NCBI GenBank assembly: GCA_019118275.1
Contig: DWZH01000024.1
Location: forward strand, 1 to 53,435
Origin: Candidatus Brachybacterium merdavium
GTDB taxonomy: Bacteria > Actinomycetota > Actinomycetes > Actinomycetales > Dermabacteraceae
DNA: 53,435 nt
Reading direction: 5' to 3'
Below, piece by piece: positions 12,719 through 24,621 of the stretch (position 1 is the stretch's first letter; each line of letters begins with the position of its first letter). Position numbers and translations under genes: made by a program. Below the pieces are notes generated by a model. That model did no database searches. It was not told where the DNA came from and was given only the letters and a program-made list of their open reading frames with translations.

Positions 12719-14983
12719 TCACCAGTCCAGGATCGACCAGCGCTTCTTCTTGGCCACGGCGTACAGGCCCAGGTCCGGGGAGATCGCATGGGGCGAGCCC
12801 ACCAGGTCCAGCCAGGCGGCGTCGGCGTGGGAGTCGCCGTAGCCGTGGGAGGCCTTCAGATCCGCCTCATGGGACGCGGCGTACTTGCGCAGCCAGTTGG
12901 CGCGCGCCTCGTCGACCAGCGGGGGAGTGGCGAGGTAGCCGGTCATCACACCGGACTCGTCGACATCCATGTGGGTGGCCATGACCTCGTCGAACAGGTC
13001 GGCCAGCGGCTCGATGAGCACGTCCAGCGCGCCGGAGACCAGCACCGTGCGGTGCCCGGCAGCTCGGTGGCGCTCGATCACCTCGAGGGCCTCGGGACGG
13101 ATGGAGGCGCGGATCTTCCGGCCCAGCTCACCGGACATCAGGGCCCGCAGGTCCTCCTCGCGGTAGCCCTTGTAGCGGCGGTTGACCAGACGGATCAGCT
13201 CGGAGCGGTCGCGCTGCTCGGCGCGGAGGTACCCGGGCAGGGCCGCCAGCAGGCCGCCGATCTCGGCCGGCCACGCGCGGCGCGGACGGGTCGCCCGGAC
13301 CACCGCGAAGTACTGCTGGACGATGTTGGTGGCGATCACCGTGCCGTCCAGGTCGAACACCGCCAGCGCCGCGGGATCGCTCTTCAGTGCCGGGGCGGGA
13401 CGCTCGGCCCGTTTGCGCTGCGCGGCGCGGCTGCGCGAGTAGGCCTTGGTCAGTTCGGTGACGGCGGGCAGATGCTGCTTCTGGAAGTAGTCCTGCCAGG
13501 CGATCTCGGTGACGTCGAAATCGTGATCGGTGAGGAACTGGGCCGGCAGCTCCTCGCGCAGAGCGCGGGTGTTGGCGTCGTCGAAGACCATCTCGGTCTT
13601 CGTGTACTGGCGGTACAGCTCGATGTACTTGCGCAGCGTCGTCAGGCCCGAGGTGGTCTTGTGCAGGCTCGTGGTCCAGGCGCGGGTGCGGCGGGTGGCC
13701 GGTAGGTACGCCACCACGTCCTGCCCCACCTGGGTGGCCAGCTCCTTGACCCGGAAGCGTTGCTCGACCAGCTCCACGGCCGGGAAGTTCCATTCGGGCA
13801 CGGTGATGTCGCGGCCCTTGTCGTCCTGCAAGGGGTAGGTGGTGAAGTACTCGCGCACCGCGGTGACCATCTCGTGGAAGGGCAGCGGGTTCGAGTTGCC
13901 GGAGACCACCTGGAAGTAGGCGTCGTCGCCGCGCCGGGAGACGTCCTGCGTGGCCAGGGCGACGATCACGTTGACCACGAAGTCGACCGGGATGATGTCC
14001 AGGATCGAGTCGGCCAGGCCCGGGAACTCCTGGAGCATGCCGCGGCCATAGGCCATGATCAGGGGGTCGGCGACCTTGTAGCCATCGATCCAGCCCGGGT
14101 AGGGGGTGCGCATCGCGGACTCGATGATCGAGGGGCGCACGAAGGAGACGCGGTGGCCGTTGTCGGCCCACAGGTCTTCGGCCACCCGCTCGGCCATCGC
14201 CTTGGTGAAGGTGTAGATGTCGGTCCAGCCCACGGACTGGGCGCGGGTGCGGCCGAAGTCGACCAGCCGCTCGTCGACCCAGGCGCGGCGGGCCTCTTCG
14301 GAGGCGGTGGCCACGGCCTTGGGGCCCATGCGGCCATCGCGCGAGCGCGCCGAGCGCATCTGGGAGCGCAGGGTCTCGGGCCGACGGGACTCGGCCTCGA
14401 CCCGTTGGCGGGCCTCCTGGGCCGCTTGGTACTCGGCCCGCCAGTCGACGTCGTGGACCAGCTTGCCCTCCTGGCGCAGCCCCTTGGAGATACCGCCGAC
14501 GTAGGCGGTGGACACGTGGATCACGTGCGGGTCCTGCCCGGAGTCCAGCAGCGCCTGGTACAGGTTGCGGGCGCCGCCGACGTTGGTGCGGAAGGCCTCG
14601 TCGATCGGCGGGTCGAAGGACACCGCCGAGGCGGAGTGGATCACCACGTCGTAGGGTTCGGTCAGCTCCGGGATGTCGGTCAGATCACCCTCGAGCACCC
14701 CGACGCGCTGATCGAAGACCGCCTTGGCGCCGTTCTCGCCCTCCAGCCCGATCTGCTCGACCCAGGAGGCGAACACGGGCTTGCGCAGCAGCTGCTCGAG
14801 GCGCTTGCGGCCGGTGACCGATCCCTTGGGGCGCACCAGTGCGGTCACGTGGGTGTCCTCGGTGGTCTCCAGCAGGGACCGCAGCACGGCCTGGCCCAGG
14901 AACCCTGTCACCCCGGTCAGGAGGATCCGTGTGCTGCCTCCCGCGGTGGTGGACGCGGTGGCGGAGGACGTGCTGTGCGACAT
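12719..14983 (-). CDS. Fatty acyl-CoA reductase-like SDR fused to a HAD-IB hydrolase
   Basis: A 754-residue two-domain protein. The N-terminal part (about 1-430) is an extended short-chain dehydrogenase with the NADPH-binding motif LLTGVTGFLGQAV and an active-site YTFTK near residue 257. It is similar in layout to fatty acyl-CoA reductases that make fatty alcohols. The C-terminal part, from about residue 540, is a HAD-IB phosphatase-like domain with FDLDGTV, VLVSGAL and GDSHAD in the expected order. AGAGGGA lies ahead of the ATG. It is divergent from the SDR-PlsC-AGPS operon, and that context suggests it supplies fatty alcohol for alkyl-DHAP synthesis. The substrate of the HAD domain is unknown. 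The reductase role is inferred from fold and neighbours. Confidence 0.85.
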   Translation of the reverse strand: MSHSTSSATASTTAGGSTRILLTGVTGFLGQAVLRSLLETTEDTHVTALVRPKGSVTGRKRLEQLLRKPVFASWVEQIGLEGENGAKAVFDQRVGVLEGDLTDIPELTEPYDVVIHSASAVSFDPPIDEAFRTNVGGARNLYQALLDSGQDPHVIHVSTAYVGGISKGLRQEGKLVHDVDWRAEYQAAQEARQRVEAESRRPETLRSQMRSARSRDGRMGPKAVATASEEARRAWVDERLVDFGRTRAQSVGWTDIYTFTKAMAERVAEDLWADNGHRVSFVRPSIIESAMRTPYPGWIDGYKVADPLIMAYGRGMLQEFPGLADSILDIIPVDFVVNVIVALATQDVSRRGDDAYFQVVSGNSNPLPFHEMVTAVREYFTTYPLQDDKGRDITVPEWNFPAVELVEQRFRVKELATQVGQDVVAYLPATRRTRAWTTSLHKTTSGLTTLRKYIELYRQYTKTEMVFDDANTRALREELPAQFLTDHDFDVTEIAWQDYFQKQHLPAVTELTKAYSRSRAAQRKRAERPAPALKSDPAALAVFDLDGTVIATNIVQQYFAVVRATRPRRAWPAEIGGLLAALPGYLRAEQRDRSELIRLVNRRYKGYREEDLRALMSGELGRKIRASIRPEALEVIERHRAAGHRTVLVSGALDVLIEPLADLFDEVMATHMDVDESGVMTGYLATPPLVDEARANWLRKYAASHEADLKASHGYGDSHADAAWLDLVGSPHAISPDLGLYAVAKKKRWSILDW

Positions 14984-15089
14984 GGATTCCCTCTATGGAC
15001 GGGGTACGGCGGGGAGGCGGAACCGGTGGATTTCTGCTGTGGCGGGCCCACCTCGGCGCGGGCGAATGCCGCGCTGATCAGGGCGGCGC

Positions 15090-15100
15090 TAGTGTATCGT
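15090..15100 (+). promoter_or_regulatory. Divergent -10 region, leaderless start of the SDR gene
   Basis: TATCGT at 15095-15100 ends seven bases before the ATG at 15108, and no ribosome-binding site is present, so the mRNA is probably leaderless. The sequence around it (CTAGTGTATCGTAG) is nearly symmetrical and gives TACACT or TACGAT on the other strand, which could serve the divergent reductase gene. Confidence 0.45.
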
Positions 15101-15107
15101 AGCCGCC

Positions 15108-15884
15108 ATGCATAAGGCCCTGATCACCGGTGGCACCGCAGGCATCGGGGCCGCCTTCGCCAGAGCTTTCGCTGGTCGTGGCGTCTCCCTCGTCCTGGTC
15201 GCCCGCAGCGCCGATCGTCTCGCCGAGACCGCTGAGCGCCTGCGCCGTGAGTACGGCGTGGAGGTCGAGACCATCGTCGCCGATCTCTCCGACCGGCAGG
15301 CCCAGCAGCTGGTCGCCGACCGGCTGGAGAGCGATACCGACCCGGTCGACGTGTTCGTCAACAACGCCGGCTTCTCGGTGAAGGCGAGCCTGCTCGAGGA
15401 GGACCTGTCCCAGCACGACCTCGGCTTCGAGGTGATGGTGCGGGCGGTCCTCAAGCTCGGCGGCGCCGCCGGGCGGGCGATGAGCCGCCGCGGCCGCGGC
15501 TGGATCATCAACGTCGGCTCCGTCTCCGCGCTGGTCACCCAGAACAACTACTCCGCCATCAAGGCATGGGTGGGCAACTACTCCGAGTCCCTGGGCGTGC
15601 AGCTGGCCCGCACCGGGGTGCAGGTCACCGCGCTCATGCCGGGCTGGGTGCGCACCGAGTTCCACTCCCGCGCCGGCATCAAGGGATCCTCCATCCCCGG
15701 GGTGCTGTGGCTGGATGCCGATCATCTGGTCGAGGAGTGCCTGCGCGATGTGGCCCGCGGCAAGCCGGTCAGCGTGCCCAGCAAACGCTGGAAGCTGATC
15801 GCCGCGGTCCTGCGCGCCACCCCGCGCGGCGTGGTCGCGCGTCTGAGCTCCGTCCTCAGCCGTCGTCGCAGCCGGGAGCGCTGA
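15108..15884 (+). CDS. Short-chain dehydrogenase/reductase, candidate acyl/alkyl-DHAP reductase
   Basis: A 258-residue classical SDR. The nucleotide-binding motif is TGGTAGIG (residues 8-15) and the second strand carries VARSADR, favouring NADPH. NNAG and the catalytic triad are in place: NVGSVSA supplies Ser, YSAIK supplies Tyr and Lys. The C-terminus (about 215-258) is basic and could be membrane-associated. As first gene of the operon with an acyltransferase and an alkyl-DHAP synthase, its natural role would be reducing the ketone of acyl- or alkyl-dihydroxyacetone phosphate. That is inference; SDR folds alone do not define substrate. The stop is separated from the next ATG by one base. 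Confidence 0.85.
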   Translation: MHKALITGGTAGIGAAFARAFAGRGVSLVLVARSADRLAETAERLRREYGVEVETIVADLSDRQAQQLVADRLESDTDPVDVFVNNAGFSVKASLLEEDLSQHDLGFEVMVRAVLKLGGAAGRAMSRRGRGWIINVGSVSALVTQNNYSAIKAWVGNYSESLGVQLARTGVQVTALMPGWVRTEFHSRAGIKGSSIPGVLWLDADHLVEECLRDVARGKPVSVPSKRWKLIAAVLRATPRGVVARLSSVLSRRRSRER

Positions 15885-15885
15885 G

Positions 15886-16728
15886 ATGACCCCGAGGAAC
15901 CCGCAGCCCCCGTCGGCCGGTGACCCGGAGGACCACGAGAGCACCGGCGACCGGCAGCGGCACGAGAGCTCCCCACGCCCGTCGCTGTCAGCCCGTTCCC
16001 GCGGGGAGGGCTGGGACGTCCCCGAGGGCGGGCTGGCCAAGTACCGCTCCCGCTGGCGCGCCGCCGCCCGCTTCGTCCTGCAGCGCGGGATCTTCCGCCT
16101 CGTGATGCACTCGGCCATCACCCCCAGCTCCGAGGTGCACCGGCGGGTGCGCAGCGTGCGCGGCCCCTACGTGCTGGTGGCCAATCACACCAGCCACATC
16201 GATGCCCCGCTGTTGGCGGAGTCCCTGCCGTGGAGCCAGGCCCGGTACCTGTCCACCGGGGTGGCCTACGACTACTGGTTCACCCACCGGCCCCGCCGCT
16301 GGCTGGTGCGCTCGCTGTTCAACGCCTTCCCCGTCGACCGCGACGGCTCCCGCAAGCACTCGGGCACCTCGCGCCGCCTGCTGCGCTCGGGTGTGCCGAT
16401 CCTGGTGTTCCCCGAGGGCGGGCGCCAGACCGACGGCCGGATGAAGGACTTCAAACCCGGTGGCGCGGCGCTGGCGATCGGCGTGGGCGTGCCGGTGATC
16501 CCGGCCGCGATCATCGGCGGCTACGAGGCGATGCCCAAGGGACGCAGCTGGCCCACACCCGGCCGGCCCGCGGTAGGCGTAGTGTTCGGCGAGCCGATGA
16601 TCGCCGAGGAGGGCGAATCCGCGGTCGACTTCTCCGCTCGCATCCGCGAGCGCGTGAAGACCCTGTACGACCAGCATTACGACGAGATCCTGGCCCCCGG
16701 CGGCCGGGACGAGGAGGAAGCCGAATGA
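15886..16728 (+). CDS. PlsC-family acyltransferase
   Basis: A 280-residue 1-acyl-glycerol-3-phosphate acyltransferase family member. Motif I is NHTSHIDAPLL (NHxxxxD, the catalytic pair), motif III is VFPEGGRQTDGRM, and motif IV-like VPVIPAAIIGG follows. About 45 hydrophilic residues precede the domain. It transfers an acyl chain to glycerol-phosphate-like acceptors at the membrane. In this operon it could make acyl-DHAP, the substrate of the next enzyme, or acylate the sn-2 position of the ether product. Its stop overlaps the next ATG (ATGA), so translation is coupled. Confidence 0.88.
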   Translation: MTPRNPQPPSAGDPEDHESTGDRQRHESSPRPSLSARSRGEGWDVPEGGLAKYRSRWRAAARFVLQRGIFRLVMHSAITPSSEVHRRVRSVRGPYVLVANHTSHIDAPLLAESLPWSQARYLSTGVAYDYWFTHRPRRWLVRSLFNAFPVDRDGSRKHSGTSRRLLRSGVPILVFPEGGRQTDGRMKDFKPGGAALAIGVGVPVIPAAIIGGYEAMPKGRSWPTPGRPAVGVVFGEPMIAEEGESAVDFSARIRERVKTLYDQHYDEILAPGGRDEEEAE

Positions 16729-18431
16729 GTGCATCGCTGAGCGCGACCGAGGTGAAGCGGCACAAGTGGTGGGGCTGGGGTCTGGACGACGTCACCTTCA
16801 ACTGGCGCAACAAGCCCGGCTTCCGACCGTTCGTGAAGGAGAAGATCGGTCTGGATCTGGCGACCATGCCCGATCCGCTGACCCCCGATCTCGCCGAGCA
16901 CGAGGTTCCCGCCTCGAAGCTGGGCGCCGAGCAGCGTGAGGCCTTCGCCCGCGTGGTCGGCGCCGAGAACGTGCTCGATGACGACGAGATGCGTGTGGTC
17001 CACTCCTTCGGCCGCTCCCTGCCGGACCTGTTCCGCGCACGCCACGGCGACTTCGCACGGATCGTCGATGCGGTGGTCTACCCCGGCAGTGAGGAGGAGA
17101 TCGCCGCGGTCCTGCGGATCGTGCTCGAGGCGGACCTGGTGCTGATCCCCTACGGCGGCGGATCCTGCATCTCGGGGTCGGTGACCCCGGACATCACCGA
17201 GCAGCGCCCGGTGGTGACCATGAACCTGGGCCGCATGCGCGAGGTCCTGCGGATCGACGACACCGCGGGCCTGGCGCACGTGCAGGCCGGCGTCTACGGA
17301 CCCGACCTCGAGGAGCAGCTGAACGCCCTGGGCTGGACCATGGGGCACTTCCCGGACTCCTTCACCTACTCCACCCTCGGCGGCTGGGCCGCCACCCGCT
17401 CCTCGGGCATGCAGTCCGACAAGTACGGTGACATCGAGCAGATCGTGCGCGGCCTGCGCATGGTCCACCCCGACGGCGTGGCCGCCACCAAGCCGATCCC
17501 CGGGCGCGACGCCGGACCCAGCGTGCACGAGATGATCCTGGGCAGCGAGGGCCGGCTGGGCATCATCTCCGAGTGCACCGTGCAGATCCACCGGATGGCC
17601 CCGGTGCGTCAGGTGATCGCCTACATGTTCCCCGACTGGGAGCACGGCATCCGCGGCATGCACGCGATCGCGCGCTCGGAGGTCAAGCCCACCTTCACCC
17701 GCCTGTCCGATGGGCCCGAGACCGCCTTCAGCCTGGCGCTGGTCAAGGAGCCGGAGTCGACCAAGTCCAAGGTGATGGCCAAGGTGCAGGACGGCTTGTT
17801 CGCCTATCTGCGTGCCCAGGGCTGGGACACCACCGAGGAGATGTGCATCTCCTACGTCTGCTTCGAGGGCACCAAGGCCAACGTCGAGCGGGAGAAGGCG
17901 ATCGTCAAGAAGATCGTCTCCCGCAACGGCGGCATCACACTGGGGGCCGGCCCCGGTGCGGTCTATGACCAGAAGAAGTTCGACACCCCCTACCTGCGCG
18001 ACTTCCTGATGAACTACCAGGTCTTCGGGGACGTCTGCGAGACCGGGGCGACCTGGTCGGACCTCAACGAGGTCCACGCCACGGTCTACGACGCCTTCTA
18101 CCAGGTGCGCCGGGACGCCGACGGGCCGGGCTTCATGTTCTGCCACATGTCGCACAGCTATCACGGCGGCGCCTGCCTGTACTTCACCTTCGCCTTCCCG
18201 TACTCGAGCGACGAGACGGCGTTGGATGAGTACTACGACGCGAAGAACGCCGTGCAGCAGGCCTTCGTCGATCTCGGCTCGGGCATCTCCCACCACCACG
18301 GGGTGGGCGTCGAGCACCGCCCCTGGATGGTCGAGGACATCGGGGAGGTCGGGGCGCGCATGGTGCGCGGACTGTTCGCCGACAACGACCCCGGCCGCAA
18401 CCTCAACCCCGGCAAGGTCCTCGAACCCTGA
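16725..18431 (+). CDS. Alkyldihydroxyacetonephosphate synthase-like FAD enzyme
   Basis: A 568-residue FAD-linked enzyme matching alkyl-DHAP synthase (AGPS) along its length. The N-terminus has KWWGWG, as in eukaryotic AGPS. The FAD loop is PYGGGSCISG at about residue 142. The AGPS-specific stretch TYSTLGGWAATRSSGMQSDK lies at about 214-233. The essential triple histidine, in SGISHHHGVG, is at residues 523-525. AGPS replaces the acyl chain of acyl-DHAP by a fatty alcohol, creating the ether bond. These features separate it from plain glycolate/lactate oxidases of the same superfamily, which lack the HHH and the STLGGW signature. GAGGAGG precedes the start. Confidence 0.92.
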   Translation: MSASLSATEVKRHKWWGWGLDDVTFNWRNKPGFRPFVKEKIGLDLATMPDPLTPDLAEHEVPASKLGAEQREAFARVVGAENVLDDDEMRVVHSFGRSLPDLFRARHGDFARIVDAVVYPGSEEEIAAVLRIVLEADLVLIPYGGGSCISGSVTPDITEQRPVVTMNLGRMREVLRIDDTAGLAHVQAGVYGPDLEEQLNALGWTMGHFPDSFTYSTLGGWAATRSSGMQSDKYGDIEQIVRGLRMVHPDGVAATKPIPGRDAGPSVHEMILGSEGRLGIISECTVQIHRMAPVRQVIAYMFPDWEHGIRGMHAIARSEVKPTFTRLSDGPETAFSLALVKEPESTKSKVMAKVQDGLFAYLRAQGWDTTEEMCISYVCFEGTKANVEREKAIVKKIVSRNGGITLGAGPGAVYDQKKFDTPYLRDFLMNYQVFGDVCETGATWSDLNEVHATVYDAFYQVRRDADGPGFMFCHMSHSYHGGACLYFTFAFPYSSDETALDEYYDAKNAVQQAFVDLGSGISHHHGVGVEHRPWMVEDIGEVGARMVRGLFADNDPGRNLNPGKVLEP

Positions 18432-18432
18432 G

Positions 18433-19164
18433 ATGCATGACGTGTGGGTGCTGCGGCACGGTGAGTCGACCGCGAACGCCGCTGGGCTGATCGTCTCGGT
18501 CCCCGGTCCGCGGGCGCTCACCGAGGTGGGACTGACCGCGCTCGGCCGCGAGCAGGCCCGCACGGCCGCCGAGAGGGCCGCCGAGCAGGGCCTGGGCGCG
18601 GGCACGCTCGTGCTCACCAGCGACTTCGCCCGTGCGCGGGAGACCGCCGAGGAGTTCACCAGCGTGCTCGGGGCCCAGCCGCCCCGCCTGGATCACAGGC
18701 TGCGGGAGCGCAGCTTCGGCATCTACGACGAGGGGCCGACCCGCGCCTACGAGAGCGTCTGGGCCGCCGACCGCGAGCGGGGCCCCTACGAGGGCGAGGT
18801 GGAGCCGGTCACTGCGGTGGCCCGGCGGGTGCTGGAGGTGCTGCGCGAGGCGGACGAGATCGCCCGCGACGCCCCCGTGGTGCTGGTCGCCCACGGCGAC
18901 GTCCTGCAGATCACCCTCGCGCTCAGTGCCGGCACGGACCCGCACGACCATCGCCAGGTGCCGCACCTGGGCAACGCCGAGCTGCGCCGGATCGGGCCGG
19001 GCCGCGATCTGCGCGGGACCGCCCGACACCGGGGCGCCGACGGGGCCGACACGTTCGCAGGGTCCGACGGAGCCGGCATTCGCGCAGGCGTCGATGGGAT
19101 CGCCGTCGGCGCAGCTGGCGAGGGGCTCCGCGCGAGCAGCCCAGAGCCGAGCGGCGGCGCATGA
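18433..19164 (+). CDS. Histidine phosphatase (phosphoglycerate mutase-like)
   Basis: A 243-residue protein with the catalytic LRHGEST at its start (residues 7-13), an arginine in LTSDFARARETAEEF, and a second histidine in VVLVAHGDVLQ. This is the branch-1 histidine phosphatase pattern. The last 45 residues are a Gly/Ala-rich tail of no known function. It begins two bases after the AGPS stop, so it belongs to the operon. A phosphatase acting on a phosphorylated lipid intermediate would fit, but the family is promiscuous and this is speculation. Confidence 0.85.
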   Translation: MHDVWVLRHGESTANAAGLIVSVPGPRALTEVGLTALGREQARTAAERAAEQGLGAGTLVLTSDFARARETAEEFTSVLGAQPPRLDHRLRERSFGIYDEGPTRAYESVWAADRERGPYEGEVEPVTAVARRVLEVLREADEIARDAPVVLVAHGDVLQITLALSAGTDPHDHRQVPHLGNAELRRIGPGRDLRGTARHRGADGADTFAGSDGAGIRAGVDGIAVGAAGEGLRASSPEPSGGA

Positions 19165-19547
19165 GGAGTCGCCCCGCCTCAGTGGTGTGCGTCGTGCGCG
19201 GCGGGGCGCAGGAAGCGCGCGCCCTGGTCGAGGAGTTCTTCACCTCCCGGGGCTGGACGCCGCGTGCGCAGGTCGACGGCACCATCGCCTACGAGCACGG
19301 CAGTCGCCGACGGACCATCCTGCTCGGCGCGCTCGCGGGCAGGAGGTTCTTCCTGACCGCGGTCACCGAGGTGCGGGAGGGGGATCATGCCACTGAGATC
19401 CACTACCGCTGGGGGCCCGGGGCCGGCCTGGCCCTGGGCGGGACCATCGGCCGCAGCCGCGCGGAGCGCGTGCACACCCAGCTTGCTGCGGAGCTGGAGG
19501 CGCAGCTCGAGCGCAGCGGCCACCTGCTGCAGGTCAGACGCCGCTGA
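19161..19547 (+). CDS. Small conserved-looking hypothetical protein
   Basis: 128 residues, overlapping the phosphatase stop by four bases (ATGA) and hence in the same transcript. I do not recognise a family. It has alternating strands and helices (SVVCVVRGGAQEARALVEEFF, RRTILLGALAGRRFFLTAVTEV), a Gly-rich patch GPGAGLALGGTIGRSRAER, and no membrane helix or signal. The length, codon use and coupled start support a real gene. A lipid-binding or accessory role would be guesswork. Confidence 0.65.
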   Translation: MRSRPASVVCVVRGGAQEARALVEEFFTSRGWTPRAQVDGTIAYEHGSRRRTILLGALAGRRFFLTAVTEVREGDHATEIHYRWGPGAGLALGGTIGRSRAERVHTQLAAELEAQLERSGHLLQVRRR

Positions 19548-19673
19548 GGAGCGCGCCCCCGGGCGGCCCGGCCAGCCGGCGTCCCGTCACGGACGCCCGG
19601 CACCAGAGCCCGGAACCGGCATCCGGGATCAGCCCCCGGTGCAGGCGCCCGGCATCAGTCCCCGGGGCAGGCC

Positions 19674-20771
19674 TCAGGCATTCAGGGCGGCCATCATGCC
19701 CGGCAGATCCTCGGCGAGGTTGTCGCGCCACAGGTCCCAGTTGTGGGTGGCGCCGTGGGCGATGTCGAAGTCGTGGTCGATGCCGGCCTCGCCGAGCGCC
19801 CCGGAGAAGCGCTCCAGGTTCGGATGGACCGCGTTCTCGATGATGTCGGCCCCGATCTGCTCGAGCTTGGCCTGCAACGTCGACCAGATGTCGGGATGGT
19901 CCTCGAGCCCGTCGAAGAAGTCGAACCAGGGCCCGTCCCCGGTGCGCAGGAACACCCGCTTGTCCCGGTAGGTGCCCACGTTGTCGATCGGGTTGTAGCC
20001 CTTGGCGATCTCGGGGTAGAGATCCGCGCCCCAGGTGGCGCCGGGCAGGTTGCTGGTGGGCCAGTACTTCACGGCGTCGAAGCCGGGGCAGGCCCAGATC
20101 GCGCCGGCGACCGCGGCGCCGTCCAGGGTGGCTGGGTTGCAGTCGGCCGGACCGGAGTAGGAGCTGATGGAACGGAAGTGGCCGTAGTAGCGCTGTCCGA
20201 GCGCGAGGGCGCCCCAGCCGCCCATCGACAGGCCGGCGATCGCCATACGGGAGCGGTCGGTGCGGAAGTTCGCGTGGACGAAGGGCAGCACCTGGTCCAT
20301 GATGAACGACTCCCAGGCGGCCTCTCGGCCCGGCAGCGGGAAATTCGCATTGGAGTAGAAGGAGCCGGCACCGCCATCGGGCATCACCACGATCACGTCG
20401 TGCTGCTCGGTCTGCTCGACCACGCCTCCCTCGTTGGTCCAGTCCTGGTAGAAGCCGCCGCGCCCGTGCAGCATCAGCAGCACCGGATAGGTGCGCTCGG
20501 GGTCCTCCTCGTAGCTGGGTGGGACGGTCACCCGGATCGAGGGATCGAAGGTGGTGACCATGCCCCCGGTGTCGACCCGGAAGTCGACCGAGCGGATGTC
20601 GGGGTGGATCCACTCGCCCACCCGGTGCAGGCCGGCCGCGTCCTGGAATCCGCCGAGCGCGGAGGCGGGTCCGGCTCCGATCGCGACCAGCGGGGCCGCG
20701 GCGGCGGCCCCGAGAAGCAGGGCGCGACGCGAGGGCGCGGGAGAGGGGGCGGCAGCGGTGACGCGGGACAT
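19674..20771 (-). CDS. Secreted alpha/beta-hydrolase esterase
   Basis: A 365-residue exported esterase of the esterase D / antigen 85-like group. The N-terminus carries a Tat-type signal (PSRRALLLGAAAAAP) ending near ASA. The nucleophile elbow is AGLSMGGWGAL, an oxyanion-side motif LLMLHGRGG precedes it, and the C-terminal ATHNWDLW supplies the His. GGAGGT lies before the ATG. Such enzymes cleave or transfer short acyl groups on sugars or lipids outside the cell. It is convergent with the ether-lipid cluster, and nothing links it to that pathway directly. Confidence 0.88.
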   Translation of the reverse strand: MSRVTAAAPSPAPSRRALLLGAAAAAPLVAIGAGPASALGGFQDAAGLHRVGEWIHPDIRSVDFRVDTGGMVTTFDPSIRVTVPPSYEEDPERTYPVLLMLHGRGGFYQDWTNEGGVVEQTEQHDVIVVMPDGGAGSFYSNANFPLPGREAAWESFIMDQVLPFVHANFRTDRSRMAIAGLSMGGWGALALGQRYYGHFRSISSYSGPADCNPATLDGAAVAGAIWACPGFDAVKYWPTSNLPGATWGADLYPEIAKGYNPIDNVGTYRDKRVFLRTGDGPWFDFFDGLEDHPDIWSTLQAKLEQIGADIIENAVHPNLERFSGALGEAGIDHDFDIAHGATHNWDLWRDNLAEDLPGMMAALNA

Positions 20772-21354: not shown

Positions 21355-22128
21355 ATGACATTGCGCATCGCCGTGTTCGGCGAGAACCGGCACGAGAAGG
21401 TCGACCCGAAGGTCCAGGAGGTCTACCCCGAGGGCATGCACACCGTGATCGCGGAGGCGCTGCGGAGCCATCTCGCGGCCGACGGGATCGACGCCGAGGT
21501 GCGTATCGCCCTGCTCGACGACATCGACCAGTCGCTGTCCGAGGAGGCGCTCGCCGAGACCGACGTGCTCACCTGGTGGGGCCACATGGCCCACGGTGAC
21601 GTCCCCGACGAGGTCAGCGAGCGCGTGGTGCGCCGTGTCCACGAGGGGATGGGGTTCATCCCGCTGCACTCGGCCCACTACGCCAAGCCCTTCAAGGCGC
21701 TCATGGGCACCACCTGCAACCTGCTGTGGCGCAACGACGGCGAGGAGGAGCGGGTGTGGACCGTCAACGGTTCCCACCCCATCGCGCGCGGCGTCCCGCA
21801 TCCGATCATCGTGCCCGAGCAGGAGATGTACGGCGAGATGTTCGACATCCCCGCCCCCGACGAGCTGGTGTTCATCTCCTCCTTCGCCGGGGGAGAGGTG
21901 TTCCGCTCCGGCGCCGTGTTCCGCCGCGGCAAGGGCAAGATCTTCTACTTCAGCCCCGGCGACCAGGAGTACCCCGTCTACCGCCGGCCGGACATCCAGC
22001 GGGTGCTGGCCAACGCCGTGACCTGGGCTCGCCCCGAGGACCGCCCGGCCGCCCCGGTGACCATCACCAACGCCCAGCGCGACTGGTTCCGTGCCGACGA
22101 CCCCGAGGGGACCACACGTGTCATCTGA
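21355..22128 (+). CDS. ThuA-domain protein (trehalose utilisation-like)
   Basis: A 257-residue protein with the class I glutamine amidotransferase-like fold of ThuA: RIAVFGENRHE at the start, DVLTWWGHMAHGDV, GFIPLHSAHYAKPF and RGKGKIFYFSPGDQEYPVY. ThuA proteins act in sugar catabolism, in some organisms in oxidising disaccharides together with a Gfo/Idh/MocA dehydrogenase, and exactly such a gene follows here. ATG at 21355 follows a purine-rich stretch with AAGGA. A -10-like TACGAT lies at 21291 but no good -35 accompanies it. Confidence 0.9.
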   Translation: MTLRIAVFGENRHEKVDPKVQEVYPEGMHTVIAEALRSHLAADGIDAEVRIALLDDIDQSLSEEALAETDVLTWWGHMAHGDVPDEVSERVVRRVHEGMGFIPLHSAHYAKPFKALMGTTCNLLWRNDGEEERVWTVNGSHPIARGVPHPIIVPEQEMYGEMFDIPAPDELVFISSFAGGEVFRSGAVFRRGKGKIFYFSPGDQEYPVYRRPDIQRVLANAVTWARPEDRPAAPVTITNAQRDWFRADDPEGTTRVI

Positions 22129-23356
22129 TCTCGCCACCGACCGCACCCCGGCCGGCGGGGCCACCACTGCCGACACCTCCGCCGCCCCGACCCCGGCCGC
22201 CCAGCGGACCGCTTTCCCGGCCCTGCCCGCGGACCGCCCCGCCCGGGTGGTCGTCGTCGGCGCCGGAGCGATGGGCTCGTGGTGGGCCCGGGAGATCGCC
22301 GCCAGCCCGGTCGCCGAGCTGGCCGGGGTCGCCGACCTCGTCGAGGGCGCCCCGCAGCGTGTGATCGAGCAGTCCGGCGTCCCGGACCCGGCGGCCGTGG
22401 GCGTGGGCACCGATGGGGTCGACCTCGCGCTCGAGGTGGAGGCGGACCTGATCGTCAACCCCACCGTCCCGCTCGCCCACCACCCGGTCACGATCAAGGC
22501 CCTGCAGGCCGGCGTCCCGGTGCTCGGAGAGAAGCCGGTCACCGAGACCCTGCCGGAGGCCCTCAGCCTGGTCGCCCACGCAGAGCTCACCGGGACCCCG
22601 TTCATGGTCTCCCAGTCCCGGCGGTTCTTCCGCCAGGTGCGCCAGCTGCGCAGCTTCGTCGCCGCCCACGGGCCGACGGTCCTGACCAGCGCCTTCTTCT
22701 CGCTGTTCACCGAGCTGGAGGGGTATCGGCGCACCCAGCTGCACCCGCTGCTGCGCGATATGGGCATCCATGCCTTCGACACCGCCCGCTACATCATGGA
22801 CGCCGACCCGGTCGCGGTGACCGCTCATGGGGCACGCCCCGAGTGGAGCGTGTACGCCCACGACGCCACGGTGACCGCGACCTTCGAGATGTCCGACGGG
22901 TCGCTGTTCGTCTACAACGGCACCTGGAACGCCCGCGGCCTGCCCACGTACTGGAACAGCGAATGGCGGATCGGGGCGCAGCTGGGCTCGGCGACCTGGG
23001 ACGGGACCGGTGCGCCGGTGCTCGGCACCGACGAGGAGGAGGAGACCGCCCGTCTGCAGGACGAGGTGGCCGCCGAGAGCGGCGAGGAGCCCGACCAGAT
23101 CGCGGCCTCCCTGATCGAGTTCGTCTCCGCGCTGCGCGAGGGCCGCACCCCGATGTGCGAGGTCCACGAGAACCTGCTCAGCTTCGCGATGGTCGAGGCG
23201 GCTGTCGCGTCCATCGACCACGGTGGCCGCATCGAGATCGACGAGCTGCTCGAACAGGCCCGGGTGGAGGCGATCGCCGCCGAGACCGACGAGCGGGCTC
23301 GCGAGCTCATGCATTCCTGGAGCTCGGTGCGTGAGGCGCTGCTGGCGGGGCAGTGA
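22118..23356 (+). CDS. Gfo/Idh/MocA family oxidoreductase
   Basis: A 412-residue NAD(P)-dependent sugar dehydrogenase. About 40 disordered residues precede the Rossmann motif VVVVGAGAMGSWW. The family's catalytic EKPVTETLPEA (Glu-Lys-Pro) is present, and RDMGIHAFDTARYI supplies the active-site His region. GTG at 22118 has GAGGGG seven bases upstream and overlaps the ThuA stop by 11 bases. Likely oxidises a sugar or inositol-like substrate in concert with ThuA. The exact substrate is unknown. Confidence 0.9.
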   Translation: MSSDLATDRTPAGGATTADTSAAPTPAAQRTAFPALPADRPARVVVVGAGAMGSWWAREIAASPVAELAGVADLVEGAPQRVIEQSGVPDPAAVGVGTDGVDLALEVEADLIVNPTVPLAHHPVTIKALQAGVPVLGEKPVTETLPEALSLVAHAELTGTPFMVSQSRRFFRQVRQLRSFVAAHGPTVLTSAFFSLFTELEGYRRTQLHPLLRDMGIHAFDTARYIMDADPVAVTAHGARPEWSVYAHDATVTATFEMSDGSLFVYNGTWNARGLPTYWNSEWRIGAQLGSATWDGTGAPVLGTDEEEETARLQDEVAAESGEEPDQIAASLIEFVSALREGRTPMCEVHENLLSFAMVEAAVASIDHGGRIEIDELLEQARVEAIAAETDERARELMHSWSSVREALLAGQ

Positions 23357-24523: not shown

Positions 24524-24548
24524 CACGATGTCCTGAGACATCACACTG

Positions 24549-24621
24549 CGCGCCCGGAGGGATTCGAACCCCCAACCTTCTGATCCGTAGTCAGATGCTC
24601 TATCCGTTAAGCTACGGGCGC
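24549..24621 (-). tRNA. tRNA-Arg(ACG)
   Basis: The minus strand folds into a full cloverleaf: acceptor GCGCCCG/CGGGCGC, D-arm AGCTTAACGGATAGAGC, anticodon stem TCTGA/TCAGA with loop CTACGGA (anticodon ACG), T-arm with GGTTCGAATCC. ACG, read as ICG after deamination, decodes CGU, CGC and CGA. CCA is not fully encoded (the 3' end reads GCGCGCA). Confidence 0.95.

What the first reader, a model, noticed from the sequence alone, without database searches (positions are those of the whole stretch)
12719..19547. Compact cluster equivalent to the peroxisomal ether-lipid pathway
In 6.8 kb there are: a fatty acyl-CoA reductase-like enzyme (fatty alcohol), a PlsC acyltransferase (acyl-DHAP step), an AGPS homologue with the HHH motif (ether bond formation) and an SDR that could reduce the keto group. 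Two phosphatase-like activities (HAD domain and histidine phosphatase) are also present. These match FAR1, GNPAT, AGPS and the acyl/alkyl-DHAP reductase of animals one for one. Ether glycerolipids in aerobic actinobacteria are poorly documented, and a dedicated coupled operon argues that the product is real.
Basis: partly seen in the sequence, partly recalled or inferred. Interest (0 to 1): 0.75.

Follow-up and report, generated by a model that had tools for sequence, protein, structure and literature searches.

The report
Ether-lipid gene cluster in Brachybacterium
A Brachybacterium-like bacterium carries side by side the kinds of enzymes that animals use in peroxisomes to make ether lipids, and a pair of desaturase-like genes that travels with them may be what turns such lipids into plasmalogens.

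Summary
A FAR-HAD fusion (12719-14983, -) lies divergent from SDR, PlsC and AGPS (15108-18431, +). AGPS is the firmest assignment: its best solved matches are Dictyostelium and guinea-pig AGPS (1.6e-99, 1.6e-79) and the residues R419, R515, Y578 and HHH are kept. SDR-PlsC-AGPS stands in this order in 73 of 79 related loci; FAR-HAD lies divergently upstream in 55, and 16 of 18 genomes searched from loci without it carry one elsewhere. This is most likely a dedicated alkyl-ether lipid pathway (0.85). The GNPAT and reductase roles are family-level inferences; the histidine phosphatase is a local neighbour. New: a soluble diiron protein with acyl-ACP-desaturase fold, paired with a degenerate paralogue, lies within 1 kb of FAR-HAD in 29 of 79 loci; the own genome has the pair elsewhere. 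In 196 genomes it occurs in 19 of the 20 with FAR-HAD class I; in genome G047 the pair and all four pathway genes form one co-directional run. Aerobic Subtercola and Kineococcus give dimethyl acetals, a mark of plasmalogens, and a Subtercola MAG encodes this protein. It is a candidate plasmanyl desaturase other than CarF/PEDS1. No lipid or enzyme test was possible.

The parts
12719..14983 (-). FAR-HAD fusion, 754 aa: fatty acyl-CoA reductase (TGxxGxxG at 23, YxxxK at 257) plus HAD-IB phosphatase domain (DxDxT at 544, GDxxxD at 716)
   Evidence: Pfam and NCBIfam; PDB 7eoz fatty acyl-CoA reductase 4.7e-42; in 58 rows TGxxGxxG kept in 57 (one gap), YxxxK and the HAD nucleophile in 58, but HAD D546 is E in 24
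15108..15884 (+). SDR, 258 aa; candidate alkyl/acyl-DHAP reductase
   Evidence: PF00106; Ser138, Tyr148, Lys152 in 77 of 77 rows; best NCBIfam model is mycolate reductase, 159 bits, under its cut-off of 380
15886..16728 (+). PlsC-family acyltransferase, 280 aa; acyl-DHAP or sn-2 acylation
   Evidence: PF01553; H101 and D106 of HX4D in 79 of 79 rows, FPEG in 77; PDB 5kym 1-acyl-G3P acyltransferase 1.9e-15; four other PF01553 matches in the own genome
16725..18431 (+). AGPS (alkyl-DHAP synthase), 568 aa, overlaps PlsC by 4 bp
   Evidence: PDB 2uuu 1.6e-99, 4bby 1.6e-79; R326, R425, Y486, H523-H525 = guinea-pig R419, R515, Y578, H615-617; on the eukaryotic side of the unrooted AGPS tree
18434..19164 (+). 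histidine phosphatase, 243 aa; neighbour in Brachybacterium, not in the widely conserved set
   Evidence: PF00300; 18 of 79 loci by similarity or motif
19161..19547 (+). small gene, 128 aa, unknown; ATGA overlap with the gene before it
   Evidence: read; 15 of 79 loci; no Pfam match

Best explanation
The cluster makes alkyl-ether glycerolipids by the AGPS (DHAP) route. FAR reduces an acyl-CoA (or acyl-ACP) to a fatty alcohol; an acyl-DHAP is formed, most simply by the cluster's PlsC; AGPS swaps the acyl group for the alcohol and gives alkyl-DHAP; the SDR reduces the keto group to 1-alkyl-glycerol-3-phosphate, which then enters ordinary phospholipid synthesis. The fused HAD domain is probably a lipid-phosphate phosphatase that steers part of the product to neutral or glycolipid forms. 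Shown by computation: the genes, their catalytic residues, their order and its conservation, and AGPS kinship. Inferred: every substrate and product, and the roles of PlsC, SDR and HAD.
For: AGPS: best PDB matches are the two solved AGPS enzymes, far ahead of the next family at 2.2e-19. R419 is kept in 83 of 83 class I rows and R515, Y578, H615-617 in 82 of 83, the other row a gap. An unrooted tree puts class I and guinea-pig and Dictyostelium AGPS on one side of a 99/92 split, 17 other actinobacterial homologues on the other. SDR>PlsC>AGPS in order in 73 of 79 loci; FAR-HAD divergent upstream in all 55 that have it. In G047 FAR-HAD, SDR, PlsC and AGPS follow each other on one strand. FAR-HAD elsewhere in 16 of 18 genomes of FAR-less loci. 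Same genus: AGPS 36 of 36, FAR-HAD 36 of 36. In 196 genomes of the class AGPS class I is in 25, FAR-HAD class I in 20, both in 18. The own genome has one AGPS (a second hit is weak, 4.9e-7) and four other PF01553 matches, so the cluster's PlsC is an extra one. The DUF2229 domain, recalled as part of the anaerobic plasmalogen synthase, is in 0 of 25 AGPS class I genomes, with controls ringing in 4 of 14.
Against: I found no lipid data for this strain or genus. 2 of 18 FAR-less genomes show no FAR-HAD. 7 of 25 AGPS class I genomes lack class I FAR-HAD; 5 of those 7 hold a class II one, G212 and G238 none at 1e-50. G131 and G196 have FAR-HAD class I without an AGPS match at 1e-50. FAR-HAD class II occurs without AGPS class I in 24 of 29 genomes, so the fusion has other uses. 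The AGPS residues do not tell class I from class II: the 17 class II rows keep them too, but for one H616Q. Both eukaryotic rows have long branches (2.75, 1.57) and the tree has no outgroup, so their place is unsure. In M. xanthus loss of the AGPS homologue reduced ether lipids only a little (PMC9131029, passages). PMC11868695 (passages) warns, of ElbD in Pontiella, that a homologue need not mean the lipid is made. Related genomes are not independent.
Confidence: 0.85

Rival explanations
1. The cluster's PlsC is the sn-2 acyltransferase that acylates 1-alkyl-glycerol-3-phosphate, and acyl-DHAP comes from another acyltransferase. The pathway is the same, but the match to GNPAT is wrong.
For: Its only solved relative at E<=1 is a 1-acyl-G3P acyltransferase (5kym, 1.9e-15) and its NCBIfam hits are phospholipid or 1-acyl-G3P acyltransferase models, all below cut-off. 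The genome has four other PF01553 matches.
Against: AGPS needs acyl-DHAP and the gene is fixed between SDR and AGPS. In M. xanthus the AGPS operon also holds a GNPAT-like domain (PMC9131029, passages).
Confidence: 0.4
2. The diiron pair that travels with FAR-HAD is an ordinary acyl-chain desaturase (acyl-ACP or acyl-CoA) with no role in vinyl-ether formation.
Against: It lies within 1 kb of FAR-HAD in 29 of 79 loci and in one run with the pathway genes in G047. Subtercola is reported to give dimethyl acetals and a Subtercola MAG encodes the protein.
Confidence: 0.4
3. The AGPS-like enzyme acts on another substrate and FAR serves wax esters or hydrocarbons; no ether lipid is made.
Against: Active-site residues of AGPS are kept, class I is on the eukaryotic side of the tree, and acyltransferase and SDR are fixed neighbours.
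Confidence: 0.1

Closest known systems
Peroxisomal ether-lipid pathway of animals (FAR1, GNPAT, AGPS, acyl/alkyl-DHAP reductase)
   Same: FAR, AGPS with the key residues, an acyltransferase and an SDR
   Different: clustered in one place in a bacterium; FAR is fused to HAD; acyltransferase is of the PlsC type; no CarF/PEDS1 hit (search not validated by its control)
Myxococcus xanthus MXAN_1676-1674 operon (PMC9131029, passages)
   [quoted passage not shown] aerobic
   Different: there FAR is fused to the acyltransferase and loss of AGPS had a minor effect because ElbD dominates; here FAR is fused to HAD and divergent. Sequences not compared here
elb operon of myxobacteria (ElbA-E)
   Same: brings together FAR-like, acyltransferase and HAD-family functions (PMC9131029, passages)
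   Different: ElbD is one multidomain protein with ACS and ACP domains; the passages name no AGPS in this operon
Anaerobic plasmalogen synthase (pls operon)
   Same: also gives bacterial plasmalogens
   Different: different chemistry (recalled); DUF2229, recalled as part of PlsA, is in 0 of 25 AGPS class I genomes
Soluble acyl-ACP desaturases (castor, ivy, M. tuberculosis DesA2), for the diiron protein outside the window
   Different: 12-18% identity; a 261-aa form with a degenerate paralogue; linked to FAR-HAD

Membership tests
AGPS (alkyl-DHAP synthase) | FAD_binding_4 plus FAD-oxidase_C domains | tested here: met
   2.6e-32 and 3e-30
AGPS (alkyl-DHAP synthase) | R419, R515, Y578 and H615-617 (residue roles recalled; numbering counted from the PDB alignment) | tested here: met
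   window R326, R425, Y486, H523-525; class II homologues keep them too
AGPS (alkyl-DHAP synthase) | closer to known AGPS than to glycolate oxidase, D-lactate or D-2-hydroxyglutarate dehydrogenase | tested here: met
   1.6e-99 against 2.2e-19 or weaker; on the eukaryotic side of an unrooted tree, 99/92, with long branches
AGPS (alkyl-DHAP synthase) | forms alkyl-DHAP from acyl-DHAP and fatty alcohol | not testable with these tools
   needs an enzyme assay
FAR1-like alcohol-forming acyl-CoA reductase | NAD_binding_4 with GxxGxxG and YxxxK | tested here: met
   PF07993 3.3e-45; motifs in 57 and 58 of 58 rows; PDB 7eoz 4.7e-42
FAR1-like alcohol-forming acyl-CoA reductase | FAR C-terminal (Sterile) domain | tested here: inconclusive
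   PF03015 3.8e-8 but 33.8 bits, under its cut-off of 35.4
GNPAT (DHAP acyltransferase) | HX4D acyltransferase acting on DHAP | tested here: inconclusive
   HX4D kept, but relatives named are 1-acyl-G3P or phospholipid acyltransferases
Acyl/alkyl-DHAP reductase | SDR acting on alkyl-DHAP | tested here: inconclusive
   Ser, Tyr and Lys in 77 of 77 rows; substrate unknown; best model mycolate reductase, under cut-off
CarF/PEDS1 plasmanyl desaturase | Lipid_desat (PF10520) domain (link recalled) | tested here: inconclusive
   0 of 25 AGPS class I genomes, but the control rang in 0 of 14 genomes
PlsA anaerobic plasmalogen synthase | DUF2229 domain (recalled as part of PlsA) | tested here: not met
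   0 of 25, the own genome included; controls ring in 4 of 14
Soluble acyl-ACP desaturase superfamily (diiron protein, G000:C136:4683-5465) | ferritin-like fold with E, ExxH, E, ExxH diiron ligands | tested here: met
Soluble acyl-ACP desaturase superfamily (diiron protein, G000:C136:4683-5465) | Pfam FA_desaturase_2 over its cut-off | tested here: inconclusive
   over the cut-off in 1 of 3 main proteins tried, 0 of 3 paralogues; the own copy was not scanned

The most novel reading that the evidence does not exclude
The soluble diiron protein with acyl-ACP-desaturase fold and its degenerate paralogue are a second, unrelated solution to the last step of aerobic plasmalogen synthesis: a plasmanyl 1'-desaturase unlike the membrane-bound CarF/PEDS1. 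With FAR-HAD, SDR, PlsC and AGPS they would form a complete aerobic plasmalogen pathway in Actinobacteria and explain the dimethyl acetals of Subtercola and other aerobic genera.
Probability: 0.45. Interest if true: 0.82.

Novelty: new variant of a known kind. Interest (0 to 1): 0.62.

Why it matters
Aerobic bacterial ether-lipid synthesis is worked out only in part, mainly in myxobacteria. A compact cluster in culturable Gram-positive genera gives a tractable system for AGPS and FAR chemistry. Dimethyl acetals are reported for aerobic actinobacteria, and the passages that I read assign no genes to them; this cluster plus the diiron pair names genes to test. It also predicts that some '14:0 2-OH' peaks in taxonomic descriptions are misread vinyl-ether products.

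Tried and rejected
One operon in the window: rejected, FAR-HAD is divergent here and in the 55 loci of the 79 that have it; but in G047 all genes are co-directional. Histidine phosphatase as a core member: rejected, 18 of 79 loci, although one also follows AGPS in G047. 'Clusters without a reductase refute the pathway': rejected, 16 of 18 such genomes have a FAR-HAD elsewhere. A strict AGPS-diiron link: rejected, the diiron protein follows FAR-HAD class I more closely (19 of 20) than AGPS class I (17 of 25) and is absent at 1e-20 from 17 of 18 genomes with FAR-less loci. CarF: searched, control uninformative. Hydrocarbon synthesis from FAR plus diiron protein: kept only as part of a weak rival. 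Literature searches listed no paper that I recognised as describing this cluster or the diiron protein; they cover openly licensed papers only, listings show the first 4 to 20 titles, and I read passages of five papers, so this is weak evidence of absence. The second structure model allowed was not run.

Limits. One search listed the best 120 of 6154 homologues, the best 120 of 1411 and 1440. Class thresholds (AGPS E<=1e-179, FAR-HAD E<=1e-230, diiron protein E<=1e-89) were set by eye at gaps and the carriers were typed into; one search scored at most 7 and at most 5 first-look candidates a genome. Gene calls come from a simple length and GC3 script; presence counts use tblastn. The 'SMALL' column is void (wrong frame), as are the scans of 19387-19971; replace them. 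The tree used 43 chosen rows of 102. In one search, 17 of 18 class II stretches gave a row (L120 gave none) and 82 of 83 class I loci did. On checking I raised the novel case from 0.40 to 0.45 because (paralogue beside the diiron gene's locus in 29 of 29; one run in G047).
Full report
What is there. The window lies in a 3.66-Mb genome (G000:C118) whose nearest named relatives are Brachybacterium. The region holds a FAR-HAD fusion on the minus strand (12719-14983) and, divergently and 124 bp away, SDR (15108-15884), PlsC (15886-16728), AGPS (16725-18431), a histidine phosphatase (18434-19164) and a small gene (19161-19547). SDR and PlsC are 1 bp apart, PlsC and AGPS overlap by 4 bp, AGPS and the phosphatase are 2 bp apart, so the plus-strand genes are probably co-transcribed. 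This corrects two points of the finding: reductase and HAD phosphatase are one protein, and in the window it is not in the same transcription unit as AGPS.

AGPS. Against all solved structures the best matches are Dictyostelium AGPS (2uuu, 1.6e-99) and guinea-pig AGPS (4bby, 1.6e-79); the next family is at 2.2e-19. In an alignment of 83 class I rows (the window and 82 loci), R419 is kept in 83 and R515, Y578, H615, H616 and H617 in 82, the other row being a gap (guinea-pig numbering; roles recalled). R419 and Y578 are the positions at which chains 4bc7 and 4bca differ from 4bby. In an unrooted tree of 43 rows, class I and the two eukaryotic enzymes are on one side of a 99/92 split and 17 more distant actinobacterial homologues (class II) on the other. 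The eukaryotic rows have long branches and there is no outgroup, so this is support, not proof. Class II keeps the same residues but for one H616Q, so the residues alone do not single out this cluster, and AGPS-like enzymes are more widespread. PMC11868695 (passages) already reports Agps homologues in actinobacterial MAGs.

The other enzymes. Of 58 FAR-HAD rows 57 keep TGxxGxxG and 58 keep YxxxK and the HAD nucleophile, but the second HAD aspartate is glutamate in 24; SDR keeps Ser, Tyr and Lys in 77 of 77; PlsC keeps HX4D in 79 of 79. The closest solved relative of FAR is a fatty acyl-CoA reductase (7eoz, 4.7e-42), of PlsC a 1-acyl-G3P acyltransferase (5kym, 1.9e-15). The genome has four further PF01553 matches, so PlsC here is an extra copy. 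Whether it acylates DHAP or the sn-2 position cannot be told from sequence.

Conservation. One scan of named genomes gave 79 loci: Brachybacterium, Brevibacterium, Dermabacter, Helcobacillus, Kocuria, Streptomyces, Plantibacter, Herbiconiux, Frondihabitans, Phytoactinopolyspora, Propionibacteriaceae and others. SDR>PlsC>AGPS is in this order in 73 of 79. Of the six exceptions L034, L055 and L065 begin within 160 bp of AGPS, L068 holds 1.6 kb upstream, L062 has PlsC downstream, and L080 has PlsC but no SDR match. FAR-HAD is found in 55 and is divergent upstream of SDR in all 55. Of the 24 loci without it, 18 were followed into their genomes: 16 have a FAR-HAD elsewhere (51-53% identical in G254 and G264, 37-42% in the other 14, two of these only in fragments), 2 have none. 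Within the genus, AGPS is in 36 of 36 and FAR-HAD in 36 of 36 genomes. Across 196 genomes of the class, AGPS class I is in 25, FAR-HAD class I in 20, both in 18. Fisher p is 7e-18 by genome and 5e-7 by genus (6 shared of 8 and 7 among 82), but relatives are not independent: the FAR-HAD class I carriers fall in three families (f1, f19, f36).

Its distribution. In the 196 genomes it is in 21, and in 19 of the 20 with FAR-HAD class I; the exceptions are G073 (FAR-HAD without it) and G055 and G154 (it without FAR-HAD class I). It is in 17 of 25 AGPS class I genomes. Within f19, G200 and G235 have all three, G055 and G154 only the diiron protein, and G144, G174, G183, G218, G226 and G244 none of the three. 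31 of 36 same-genus genomes have it. It is absent at E<=1e-20 from 17 of 18 genomes with FAR-less loci. So it is an accessory to FAR-HAD class I and not part of the core.

Link to chemistry. Vinyl ethers give dimethyl acetals (DMA) on acid methanolysis. PMC5945732 (abstract and passages) lists DMA for four Subtercola species: i-16:0 DMA 6.9-17.0%, a-15:0 DMA 3.2-11.0%. PMC7472656 (passages) found by GC-MS that a peak called 14:0 2-OH by the MIDI system in Kineococcus rubinsiae is anteiso-15:0 DMA, calls Subtercola aerobic, and says DMA indicates plasmalogens. A Subtercola MAG protein is 76% identical to the Herbiconiux diiron protein (P0306). Frondihabitans is said to lack DMA but to have 14:0 2-OH as a major acid (PMC5945732, passages), and both Frondihabitans loci (L060, L074) hold FAR-HAD, SDR, PlsC, AGPS and the diiron gene. 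My inference is that this peak is misread DMA; as reported it stands against the idea. I could not check that Subtercola, Agreia or Kineococcus hold the full cluster. The genus Brachybacterium itself is described as facultatively anaerobic or aerobic (abstract of PMC6288415 in the listing). The anaerobic route is unlikely: DUF2229 is in 0 of 25. CarF was sought but the control failed.

Mechanism and judgement. Ether-lipid cluster: 0.85. The diiron pair as plasmanyl desaturase: 0.45. Against it: G131 and G196 have it with FAR-HAD and a PlsC relative but no AGPS match, and a chain desaturase would have the same fold. Compared with what is known, the pathway logic is that of animals and of the M. 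xanthus MXAN_1676 operon (PMC9131029, passages); the FAR-HAD fusion, the layout and the soluble diiron partner are different. Hence a new variant of a known kind. What no computation here can give is the product.

Noticed in passing
L095:6985-14929, L096:145-7355 (G131, G196): A genus (g72) has FAR-HAD class I and a PlsC relative around a lactate-racemase-like gene (Lar_N, 3.8e-39 and 3.1e-40) and a NAD_synthase-family gene that looks like LarE by eye, without AGPS: an odd neighbourhood of lipid and nickel-cofactor genes.
   Followed up: partly
G000:C136:3629-5468 (L089): Two adjacent ferritin-like genes, one with all diiron ligands and one degenerate; the same pairing is in 29 of 29 cluster loci with the main protein.
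   Followed up: yes
L050-L053, L060, L066, L074, L102: A diacylglycerol-kinase-like gene (PF00781 in L102) lies near AGPS in 7 of 79 loci and in L102; a TetR-type regulator (by eye) in 13 of 79.
   Followed up: partly
29 of 196 genomes: A second FAR-HAD class (42-46% identical), without AGPS class I in 24 of 29 genomes, suggests another use of the fusion.
   Followed up: no
window 12719-14983, codon 546: The HAD position after the nucleophile motif's first Asp is Asp in 34 and Glu in 24 of 58 homologues.
   Followed up: no
window 21355-23356: A ThuA-family gene followed by a Gfo/Idh/MocA oxidoreductase, probably sugar metabolism; unrelated.
   Followed up: no
window 24548-24621: tRNA-Arg (acg) on the minus strand.
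   Followed up: no
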